Source: Thermoanaerobaculia bacterium
GTDB taxonomy: Bacteria; Acidobacteriota; Thermoanaerobaculia; Multivoradales; JAHEKO01
Direction of reading: 5' to 3'
Length of the DNA: 47,809 nucleotides
Assembly (NCBI GenBank): GCA_945787575.1
Contig: CALZKB010000032.1
Location: forward strand, 1-47,809
Part shown: positions 27,144 through 43,736 of the stretch, one piece after another
Numbering within the stretch: position 1 is the first letter of the stretch
How the letters are laid out: the number at the start of each line of letters is the position of its first letter
The notes under the pieces: generated by a model
Database searches by the model: none
What the model was told of the DNA's origin: nothing
The model's input: the letters and a program-made list of their open reading frames with translations, nothing else
Program-made: the position numbers and the translations under genes

Positions 27144-27584
27144 CTAGGGCTGCTCGTCGGTGACCGAGCCGCTCGCGGCGGGTTCGCGGGTGAGAGCCAG
27201 GCTGGAGAACTCGCGGCAGTCGAGCGGGTCGCAGCCGTACGACGAGGCGGTGCCGAGGTCGGCTTCGAACCAGACGTGGAGGCGGCGCTGGTGGATGACG
27301 GCGTTCTGGGCGACGTCCAAGAAATACTCGAGGAGGTTACCCTGGCTGCCGAGCAGCGGCTGAAAGTTCTGCGAGACCATCGGGTAGGCGAAACGGTGGA
27401 CTTCGCGGAAACGATCCTGGGAGCGGTCGTTGAGGACGATCGGCTCCGCGCAGAGGATCTCGATCTTCTGCAAGTCGACCTTGACGGCGGACGGCGTGCA
27501 GCTGAAGTCGCGCATCTCGGCGGCCGAGGGGATGGCCAGAAGGCTCATCAGAAGCGCCGCGGACGCGGTCTGGTTCCAGTTCAT
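27144..27584 (-). CDS. Small secreted four-Cys protein of unknown function
   Basis: 146 residues with a signal peptide (hydrophobic core at ~8-18, cleavage near SAAE at 20-23). The mature part has cysteines at about 29, 45, 118 and 123, enough for two disulfides. It ends with a low-complexity acidic tail. No family is recognised. It converges with the RND operon with only a four-base gap, so the two transcripts must overlap. Upstream lies a long repeat element that may carry its promoter. Confidence 0.55.
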   Translation of the reverse strand: MNWNQTASAALLMSLLAIPSAAEMRDFSCTPSAVKVDLQKIEILCAEPIVLNDRSQDRFREVHRFAYPMVSQNFQPLLGSQGNLLEYFLDVAQNAVIHQRRLHVWFEADLGTASSYGCDPLDCREFSSLALTREPAASGSVTDEQP

Positions 27585-27662
27585 CTTCGTACCCTCGCCT
27601 GAGTTACGGTCCCTCCTGACCGTCCGTCTAGTCTACCGCCGAAACGGCCGGCCCCCTCCCAG

Positions 27663-28030
27663 TCCGTGCCCCGCTTCCCTTTGAGTCGTCGCTCCCTGGT
27701 ATCGGGCCCTCGTCGAGAAAGGGATGAGCCCCAGGGGTACGGCACGCGTACTCGGACTGCGTGTGGGCGACGCGCGCTCATTCGCCGTCGCCCCGGACGG
27801 CAATGTGATTCTGAGTGAATCAGAGGGCTCGGCTCAAGACCCCTGGGCCCTCATCCCTTTCTCGCCGGGGCCTACGGTCGTGAGCACGAAGCGGCGAGGG
27901 CTCACTCCTTGCTCCATCGGTAGGCCCAAGGCGAGATAGTGCTGACGGCCCAGGGGGCCAGCGGCTCTCTCGCCGCCAGGGCCGGCGATCCGGGATCGAA
28001 GACTCAAAGGAAACCGGGGGCCCGGGTCCC
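27663..28030. repeat. MITE-like element, copy A (with ~100-base internal insertion)
   Basis: This fills the 485-base gap 27585-28069, which holds no credible gene. The inner arms GGGATGAGCCCCAGGGG (27721-27737) and CCCCTGGGCCCTCATCCC (near 27840-27857) are near-complements. The core between them matches copy B (43507-43650) over about 145 bases without a gap. The outer arms (27663-27720 and about 27965-28030) also resemble those of copy B. Between core and right outer arm lies an extra ~100 bases with its own GGCCTAC...GTAGGCC pair. No transposase is encoded. Confidence 0.75.
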
Positions 28031-28069
28031 CGCGGACTCCCGGGGTGGGTGGGAGGCGGCCGAGTTCGG

Positions 28070-42026: not shown

Positions 42027-43421
42027 ATGAGTGAGCTGCCGACCATTCTGGTGATCGATGACGAGACCGGCTCGCGCGAGTCGATGGCGCAGGCGGTCGA
42101 GAAGATCGGCGTCGGAGTGAGAACCTTCGACGATGCCCGCGAGGCGCTGGATCACCTCGATCGCTCGCCCGGTGCGGTCGTCGCCATCTGTGATCTGCGG
42201 ATGCCGGAGATGGACGGCATCGCCTTCCTCCAGGCGGTGCGCGAGCGGGAGCTCGACCTCGGTGTGATCCTCGTCACCGGCTACGGCTCGATCGAGTCGG
42301 CGGTCGAGGCGATGCAGGTCGGCGCTGACGACTACTTGACCAAACCGATCGATCTCTACGAGCTTCGCAAGCGGGTCACCAATCTGCTGGAGAACCGCCA
42401 GCTCAAGGAAGAGGTCACGAGTCTGCGTCAGATGCTCGACAAGCGCTACGGCTTCGACTCGATCATCGGCCGGTCGGCCGGCATGGAGAGACTCTTCGAG
42501 CAGATGAACCTGGTCGGGCCGACCCGCTCCACGGTACTCGTCGTCGGCGAGAGTGGAACCGGCAAGGAGCTCGTCGCCAATGCGCTGCATCGCGTCAGTC
42601 CGCGGCGTGACGACCGATTCCTGGCGATCAACTGCGGTGCCATCCCTCCCGACATTCTGGAGAGTGAGCTCTTCGGCCACGAGAAGGGCTCGTTTACCGG
42701 CGCCACCGGCCGCAAGATCGGCAAGCTCGAGCTGGCCCATGGCGGGACGCTGTTTCTCGACGAGATCAGCGAGCTCTATCCCGAGCTCCAGGTCAAGCTG
42801 TTGCGGGTGTTGGAGGAGCGCAGCATCATGCGGGTGGGAGGCAGCGAGCTGCTCGACGTCGACTTCCGGCTGATCGCCGCCACCAACCGCAATCTCGAGC
42901 AGGAGGTCGTGGAGGGGAGGTTTCGCGAGGATCTGTTCTATCGCCTCAAGGTGGTGACGCTGAGGATTCCGCCGCTGCGCGAGCGCCCGGAAGACATCCC
43001 TCTCCTGGCCGAGCACTACCTGGCGCGTTTCTGCGAGGAGCACGGGCGGGAGCCCAAGAGTCTGAGCCACGAGGCGCTCGACCTCCTCCAGGCGGCCGCC
43101 TGGCCCGGCAACGTTCGCGAGCTGAAGAACTTGCTGGAATCGCTCGTCATCTTCCATCAGGGGTCGGTGATCGACCGTTCGGAGCTGCCTGCCGATCTTC
43201 GAATGATCGCGCCGCTGGCCGGCACCGGCCGCATTCAGGCTGCCGATGGACCGGTGCGTACGATGGTCGAAATCGAGCGGCAGGCCATTCTCGAGACCCT
43301 CGAGCTCTTCGGCGGGCACCGCGCGAAGACCGCCAAGGCCCTCGGAATCGGACTTCGGACCCTGCAGCGCAAGCTCAAGGAATACCGCCGCGAGGAAGAG
43401 ACGGAATCGGTCGAAGCCTAG
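42027..43421 (+). CDS. NtrC-family sigma-54-dependent response regulator
   Basis: 464 residues. A receiver domain (1-~120) has phospho-acceptor Asp56 (ICDLRMPEMDG) and conserved Lys106. An AAA+ domain follows with Walker A GESGTGKE (~174-181), the sigma-54 contact loop as GSFTGA (221-226) rather than the usual GAFTGA, Walker B GGTLFLDEI and an RFREDLFYRL segment. A Fis-type helix-turn-helix closes it (HRAKTAKALGIGLRTLQRKL). It activates sigma-54 promoters after phosphorylation. No histidine kinase gene is adjacent, so it is an orphan here. No -24/-12 site was found in the window. The GSFTGA variant occurs in other active members. Confidence 0.94.
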   Translation: MSELPTILVIDDETGSRESMAQAVEKIGVGVRTFDDAREALDHLDRSPGAVVAICDLRMPEMDGIAFLQAVRERELDLGVILVTGYGSIESAVEAMQVGADDYLTKPIDLYELRKRVTNLLENRQLKEEVTSLRQMLDKRYGFDSIIGRSAGMERLFEQMNLVGPTRSTVLVVGESGTGKELVANALHRVSPRRDDRFLAINCGAIPPDILESELFGHEKGSFTGATGRKIGKLELAHGGTLFLDEISELYPELQVKLLRVLEERSIMRVGGSELLDVDFRLIAATNRNLEQEVVEGRFREDLFYRLKVVTLRIPPLRERPEDIPLLAEHYLARFCEEHGREPKSLSHEALDLLQAAAWPGNVRELKNLLESLVIFHQGSVIDRSELPADLRMIAPLAGTGRIQAADGPVRTMVEIERQAILETLELFGGHRAKTAKALGIGLRTLQRKLKEYRREEETESVEA

Positions 43422-43440
43422 CCGCCGATGACCGTAGACG

Positions 43441-43701
43441 GGGACCCGTGCCTCCAGTTCTTTGAGTTCCCGCTCCATGATGTCCGGCCCCCTTCGAGAG
43501 AGGGATGAGCCCCAGGGGGACGTCGCGCGTACTCGGACTGCGAATCGGCGACGCGCGCTCATTCGCCTTCGCCCCGGACGGCAATGTGTTCCTGGTTGAT
43601 TCAGAGGGCTCGGCTCAAGCCCCCTGGGCTCTCATCCCTCTCTCGCCGCCAGGGCCGGACATCATGGAGCGACGACTCAAGGAACTGGAGCCACGGGTCC
43701 C
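43441..43701. repeat. MITE-like element, copy B, with ~80-bp terminal inverted repeats
   Basis: The left arm (43441-43519) and right arm (43620-43701) are complementary over about 80 bases, with roughly seven in eight positions matching by eye. Both ends read GGGACCCGTG/CACGGGTCCC. The ~100-base core between the arms is nearly the same as in copy A. The element fills the 315-base gap 43422-43736 between convergent genes, so it could also end both transcripts. No transposase and no clear target-site duplication are seen. Confidence 0.85.
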
Positions 43702-43736
43702 GCACCGACCGGGAGGAGAAACGCGGTCTGCCGTCT

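What the first reader, a model, noticed from the sequence alone, without database searches (positions are those of the whole stretch)
43441..43701. MITE/foldback-like element with ~80-bp terminal inverted repeats, present twice in the window
The two arms of copy B are nearly complementary over about 80 bases and the ~100-base core is shared with copy A at 27663-28030, 15.5 kb away. Both copies lie in gene-free gaps. Length, ends and absence of an encoded protein fit a non-autonomous mobile element or a structured RNA gene family, and I cannot name a known family for it.
Basis: partly seen in the sequence, partly recalled or inferred. Interest (0 to 1): 0.72.

Follow-up and report, generated by a model that had tools for sequence, protein, structure and literature searches.

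The report
Long REP-ended hairpin element, internally deleted
The feature is one of about 17 scattered, gene-free copies of a strongly self-folding DNA element that ends in short GTAG-tagged repeats (REPs), so it is probably a passenger moved by a REP-type transposase; it is an oversized version of a known kind of bacterial repeat.

Summary
B (43434-43709) is a foldback element whose arms are 90% complementary over 50 bp plus 84% over a further 25 bp. It shares 189 bp at 87% with A (about 27653-28038). The host genome (5.59 Mb, 484 contigs) holds about 17 copies, all in gaps between different genes. Intact copies end in GTAG + CCGGGGGACCCGTGCCCCCGG, the layout of GTAG-type REP sequences. The hairpin alone has 66 hits in the genome against 0 for the reversed control, and 39 of 63 examined are preceded by exact GTAG. 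The full-length unit (C18, 584 bp) is REP-arm-alpha-mid-beta'-arm'-REP'. B and A are internal-deletion derivatives with decayed REPs. Copies lie only between tandem (8) or convergent (6) genes, never divergent. They show no target duplication, no coding signal and no Rfam match. At site A a same-genus genome keeps the neighbours but lacks the insert. Neither element nor REP was found in 58 relatives. Best reading: an oversized head-to-head REP dimer (REPIN/BIME-like), probably mobilised in trans by a Y1/HUH transposase. One short REP-transposase-like gene is present, but unlinked to any REP, so the mover is inferred. New variant of a known kind.

The parts
43434..43457 (+). Copy B, left terminal REP: GTAG + degenerate hairpin (GTAGACGGGGACCCGTGCCTCCAG)
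   Evidence: Read directly and compared with the genome-wide REP consensus GTAG-CCGGGGGACCCGTGCCCCCGG
43458..43490 (+). Copy B, left arm (TTCTTTGAGTT..GTCCGGCCC)
   Evidence: module mapping; inverted repeat
43495..43645 (+). Copy B, hairpin unit alpha (151 nt)
   Evidence: 10 copies aligned without indels; fold
43652..43684 (-). Copy B, right arm (inverted copy of the left arm)
43685..43709 (-). Copy B, right terminal REP, decayed (CTAC reads CGAC)
   Evidence: read directly
27653..27674 (+). Copy A, left terminal REP, strongly decayed, no GTAG
   Evidence: read directly; not recovered by the REP search, so assigned by position only
27679..27709 (+). Copy A, left arm
27714..27864 (+). Copy A, hairpin unit alpha
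27864..27939 (+). Copy A, shortened middle region (midL 1-31 joined to midR)
27931..27974 (+). Copy A, remnants of unit beta' (its two ends; the interior is deleted)
27979..28009 (-). Copy A, right arm
28014..28034 (-). Copy A, right terminal REP (3 mismatches to the hairpin consensus)

Best explanation
A and B are degenerate, internally deleted copies of a non-autonomous mobile element: a head-to-head pair of GTAG-type REP sequences enclosing a long, conserved, hierarchically palindromic spacer (arm-alpha-mid-beta'-arm'). Shown here: the REP ends, the full-length plan, dispersal to about 17 different intergenic sites, an element-free orthologous site for A, internal-deletion derivatives, and 3'-side placement relative to genes. 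Inferred: when single-stranded (for example at a replication fork) the element folds; a Y1/HUH transposase of the RAYT type supplied in trans recognises GTAG plus the REP hairpin, excises or copies the element as ssDNA, and joins it elsewhere without target duplication. Afterwards the palindromic interior loses segments between short direct repeats. B's junction lies in a stretch, about CTCTCTCGCC, that alpha and beta' share.
For: About 17 dispersed copies. REP hairpin 66 hits against 0 control; 46 against 0 with GTAG included in the pattern; exact GTAG before 39 of 63 hairpins although the pattern did not include it. Both ends are REPs in opposite orientation in C37, C18 and C1. A second, unrelated palindromic spacer family (C62 and about a dozen relatives) is capped by the same REPs, so the ends act as a module. 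Fourteen assignable sites: 8 tandem, 6 convergent, 0 divergent, as published for REPs (PMC3733652). No TSD of 3 or more bases at 4 elements. In G002 the genes flanking site A are adjacent with about 90 bp between them, against about 485 bp in the window. No coding signal in alpha. The genome encodes a 208-aa RAYT-like protein at C28 (60 bits to NF047646; DHLHW HUH motif and WQ....E motif) and about 12 longer Y1 proteins.
Against: The RAYT-like gene is not flanked by this REP (no match with up to 7 mismatches in about 1.5 kb each side), and its score is below NCBIfam's cut-off. The longer Y1 genes carry their own unrelated terminal repeats. Spacers of about 200-530 bp are far longer than the 20-110 bp usual for REP dimers. 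Both window copies have decayed REPs, so their ends are read from the family rather than from themselves. The empty site is resolved to the intergenic region, not to the base, because the flanks are only about 79% identical.
Confidence: 0.7

Rival explanations
1. A classical MITE: a deleted DNA transposon with long terminal inverted repeats, moved by a DDE transposase that makes target duplications.
For: Long terminal inverted repeats, no encoded protein, dispersed intergenic copies.
Against: No target duplication at the four elements with well-preserved ends. The terminal REP also occurs alone, fused as short dimers, and around an unrelated spacer, which is REP behaviour and not that of IS-type TIRs. 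DDE transposases with matching ends were not searched for.
Confidence: 0.1
2. Primarily a structured RNA: a hairpin at the 3' end of transcripts acting in termination or mRNA stability, kept by selection and copied by recombination.
For: Always on the 3' side of at least one gene, never between divergent genes. Extreme folding. Two pairs of the alpha stem changed on both sides, 5 cells against a shuffled mean of 1.3.
Against: No Rfam match. The changes are two events shared by subfamilies, which arm-to-arm copying could also give. The inner hairpin is broken in 3 of 10 copies. Copies are mosaic deletions. Absent from all relatives searched.
Confidence: 0.12
3. A REP-ended element spread without a dedicated transposase, by template switching or recombination between hairpins, or moved by one of the about 12 TIR-flanked 300-aa Y1 transposases instead of the short RAYT-like protein.
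For: No REP lies next to any Y1 gene examined here. Long Y1 proteins are abundant.
Against: Sharp, shared REP ends at unrelated sites are hard to get by template switching alone. The long Y1 genes carry different ends of their own.
Confidence: 0.2

Closest known systems
GTAG-type REP sequences and their head-to-head (HH) dimers / BIMEs (Di Nocera et al. 2013, PMC3733652)
   Same: GTAG tag beside a short GC-rich hairpin; singles and HH dimers; extragenic, between tandem or convergent genes; species-specific; spacers can contain stem-loops; REPs joined to unrelated stem-loops were also seen there in P. putida and P. fluorescens.
   Different: Spacers there are mostly 20-100 bp. Here the space between REPs is about 225 bp (B) to about 530 bp (C18), with a conserved multi-unit palindromic plan, and two unrelated long spacer families share one REP.
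REPINs (Bertels and Rainey 2011, PMC3116915)
   Same: Inverted REP doublet as the replicating unit, whole unit able to form a hairpin, compensating changes in the arms, singlets as likely remnants.
   Different: REPIN REP-to-REP spacings reported there are 71 and 110 bp; here about 260-585 bp. Their RAYT genes carry cognate REPs alongside; here none does.
REP-associated tyrosine transposases, TnpA-REP/RAYT (PMC6006769, PMC8266576)
   Same: The C28 protein has an HUH motif (DHLHW), a WQ....E stretch resembling the GTAG-contact region described there, and a best match to NF047646.
   Different: Below the curated cut-off (60 against 80 bits), and no REP next to the gene.
TIRYT transposases of Acidobacteria (PMC3733652)
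   Same: The about 12 Y1 genes of about 300 aa here are, where read, flanked by their own terminal inverted or tandem repeats unrelated to GTAG REPs.
   Different: They do not carry the ends of the element under study.

Membership tests
GTAG-type REP | Short palindrome preceded by GTAG | tested here: met
   39 of 63 hairpin hits preceded by exact GTAG. In window copy B the left GTAG is present and the right is CGAC; copy A lacks both.
GTAG-type REP | Interspersed in many copies, extragenic | tested here: met
   66 hairpin hits against 0 in the reversed control
GTAG-type REP | Located between tandem or convergent genes | tested here: met
   8 tandem, 6 convergent, 0 divergent of 14 assignable element copies
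GTAG-type REP | Cognate RAYT gene flanked by the same REP | tested here: not met
   No REP beside any of the Y1/RAYT-like genes examined. The literature notes such REPtrons can be missing from a species (PMC3733652).
REPIN / HH REP dimer | Two REPs in inverted, GTAG-outside orientation | tested here: met
   C37, C18, C1 and C62 (second family); A and B themselves are decayed
REPIN / HH REP dimer | Spacing of about 20-110 bp | tested here: not met
   Whole elements 276 bp (B) to 584 bp (C18)
REPIN / HH REP dimer | Whole unit folds into one hairpin | tested here: met
REPIN / HH REP dimer | Mobilised by RAYT through ssDNA | not testable with these tools
   needs biochemistry or population sequencing
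MITE (DDE type) | Terminal inverted repeats, no coding capacity, many copies | tested here: met
MITE (DDE type) | Target site duplication | tested here: not met
   none of 3 or more bases at C37, C62, C18, C1
MITE (DDE type) | Full-length parent IS with the same ends | not tested
   only Y1-type transposases were searched by profile
Known structured RNA | Match to an Rfam family | tested here: not met
   no match at gathering cut-off in the window
Known structured RNA | Compensating changes in many pairs | tested here: inconclusive
   2 of 32 pairs

The most novel reading that the evidence does not exclude
REP sequences in this genome act as interchangeable ends that carry long, dedicated, multi-hairpin cassettes: at least two unrelated ones of about 475-585 bp. 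The unit moved by the RAYT would then be a large folded ssDNA with its own internal architecture, a class of REP-capped cassettes beyond REPINs.
Probability: 0.3. Interest if true: 0.55.

Novelty: new variant of a known kind. Interest (0 to 1): 0.38.

Why it matters
It suggests REP ends can capture unrelated long palindromes, and it gives a concrete set of sequences for asking how much DNA a RAYT-type transposase can move.

Tried and rejected
Coding: the open frame in the core (MSPRGTSRVLGLRIGDARSF...) shows no codon-position bias and no excess of synonymous changes in its frame over 10 copies, so it is rejected as a gene. Rfam: nothing. Named genomes: an exact scan for the core motif hit four records; the one read (L120) is a chance match inside a coding region and the other three were not examined. 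Relatives: no copy of the element in 58 relatives, no REP in those 58 or in 395 genomes drawn across the phylum. Site B as an empty-site test: inconclusive, because the intergenic sequence is too diverged and rearranged in the relatives; site A worked. REPs next to Y1 transposase genes: none. A MAFFT alignment of site A misplaced the flanks; the gap lengths were read from the sequences instead.

Full report
OBSERVATION. The inverted repeat at 43441-43701 is real: outer arms 43441-43490 / 43652-43701 are 90% complementary over 50 nt, continued by 43495-43519 / 43621-43645 at 84%. The strand folds at -184.7 kcal/mol, z = -8.7; copy A at z = -5.1. A and B share 189 bp at 87%. Both lie between genes: B between a sigma-54-activating response regulator, ending at 43421, and pdxJ on the other strand; A between a pyridine nucleotide-disulphide oxidoreductase gene and a small gene starting at 27584 on the same strand.

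COPIES. The window is contig C32 of a 5.59-Mb, 484-contig genome. DNA searches with B and with A find copies on C1, C3, C5, C17 (two), C18, C21, C32 (two), C35, C37, C45, C66, C73, C123, C165, C266 and C339, about 17 in all. Several are cut by contig ends or truncated. The flanks differ from copy to copy.

ANATOMY. C18 holds the longest copy, 584 bp, and gives the full plan: REP - arm - alpha (151 nt) - mid - beta' (161 nt) - arm' - REP'. Alpha and beta each fold on themselves; they are also related to each other (B matches the beta-bearing copies C17b and C123 at about 73%), so the whole element is also one long imperfect palindrome. The other copies are mosaic deletions of this plan. B is REP-arm-alpha-arm'-REP' and A keeps alpha, shortened mid and the two edges of beta'. 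B's deletion joint lies in about CTCTCTCGCC, present at the end of both alpha and beta', as expected of deletion between short direct repeats in palindromic DNA (inference from the sequences).

ENDS. The outer tips of well-preserved copies read GTAGCCGGGGGACCCGTGCCCCCGG. With up to 3 mismatches this occurs 46 times in the genome and never as its reversed control. Searching the hairpin without the tag gives 66 hits against 0, and 39 of the 63 distinct hits examined are preceded by exact GTAG. This is the signature of GTAG-type REPs (PMC3733652). The REP also occurs alone and as short fused dimers (for example C6:97094). It also caps a second palindromic spacer family with the motif GGATTCAGGCGAAGAA, whose best copy on C62 is about 475 bp with REPs at both ends and has about a dozen relatives. 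In the window the REPs are decayed: B keeps GTAG on the left and CGAC for CTAC on the right; A keeps only a 3-mismatch hairpin on the right. Their identification therefore rests on the family.

INSERTION. No target duplication of 3 or more bases flanks C37, C62, C18 or C1. At site A, the same-genus genome G002 keeps both neighbouring genes side by side with about 90 bp between start and stop codons, against about 485 bp in the window; the difference is the size of the element. The flanks are too diverged for a base-exact empty site. At site B relatives carry no element after the regulator, but the intergenic sequence is rearranged. Neither element nor REP was found in 58 relatives, including two of the same genus, nor the REP in 395 genomes drawn across the phylum.

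POSITION. Of 14 copies with callable neighbours, 8 lie between tandem and 6 between convergent genes, none between divergent genes (genes called by a simple codon-usage script, so approximate; the window itself has few divergent gaps, 3 of 27, so the avoidance alone is suggestive only). This is how REPs are distributed elsewhere (PMC3733652).

CODING OR RNA? Ten alpha units align without an indel, but changes are spread evenly over the three codon positions and the apparent open frame shows no synonymous excess. Two stem pairs show changes on both sides (6-146 G-C to A-T in A and C266; 25-126 G-C to T-A in A, C37 and C339), 5 cells against a shuffled mean of 1.3, while an inner hairpin is broken in three copies. 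That supports keeping the arms complementary, as reported for REPINs (PMC3116915), but does not separate RNA function from ssDNA function or arm-to-arm copying. There is no Rfam match.

WHO MOVES IT? The genome encodes about 13 Y1/HUH proteins. Most are about 300 aa and, where read, have their own flanking inverted or tandem repeats unrelated to the REP, like the TIR-flanked Y1 transposases noted in Acidobacteria (PMC3733652). One, C28:21707-22327, is short (208 aa) and has an HUH motif DHLHW and WQ followed by E, resembling some of the GTAG-contact residues named for E. coli TnpA-REP (PMC6006769). It matches NF047646 best at about 60 bits, below the curated 80, with weaker homologues in some relatives. 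No REP lies beside it. It is the best candidate, not a shown one.

CONCLUSION. A and B are decayed, internally deleted members of an oversized head-to-head REP dimer family. It works like a REPIN or BIME in the respects that could be tested except two: the spacing is several times longer, and no cognate REP-flanked RAYT gene was found. I therefore call it a REP-ended element and a new long variant, not a typical REPIN.

Noticed in passing
L149 (C62:7385-9251) 697-1171; also L138, L140, L143, L158, L165, L187, L189, L205: A second palindromic spacer family (motif GGATTCAGGCGAAGAA...TTCTTCGCCTGAATCC, up to about 475 bp) capped by the same GTAG REP.
   Followed up: partly
L060-L070, L207-L217 (genome contigs C19, C57, C110, C116, C121, C124, C136, C138, C242, C261, C312, C77): About a dozen 300-aa Y1/HUH transposase genes, several with tandem or inverted repeats of their own at both sides (for example GACGTTACGGTTCCAGGTGAATAGAGC at C136) and often a CCGTCTAGT motif just upstream of the start.
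   Followed up: partly
L155 about 685-725 (C6:97094); also L167, L169, L174, L193: REPs fused head to head with almost no spacer, or overlapping, forming very short palindromes.
   Followed up: no
window 27625-27640 and L232: TCTAGTCTA upstream of the small gene at 27144-27584 (-) is kept in G002; it may be part of its promoter, and element A lies just outside it.
   Followed up: no
window 43422-43736; L133, L134, L135, L136: In G003, G005, G008 and G013 a small conserved open frame (about 75 aa, starting MELP or MEIP) directly follows the regulator; it is absent in the window genome, where element B sits, and was not seen just downstream of the regulator in G002.
   Followed up: no
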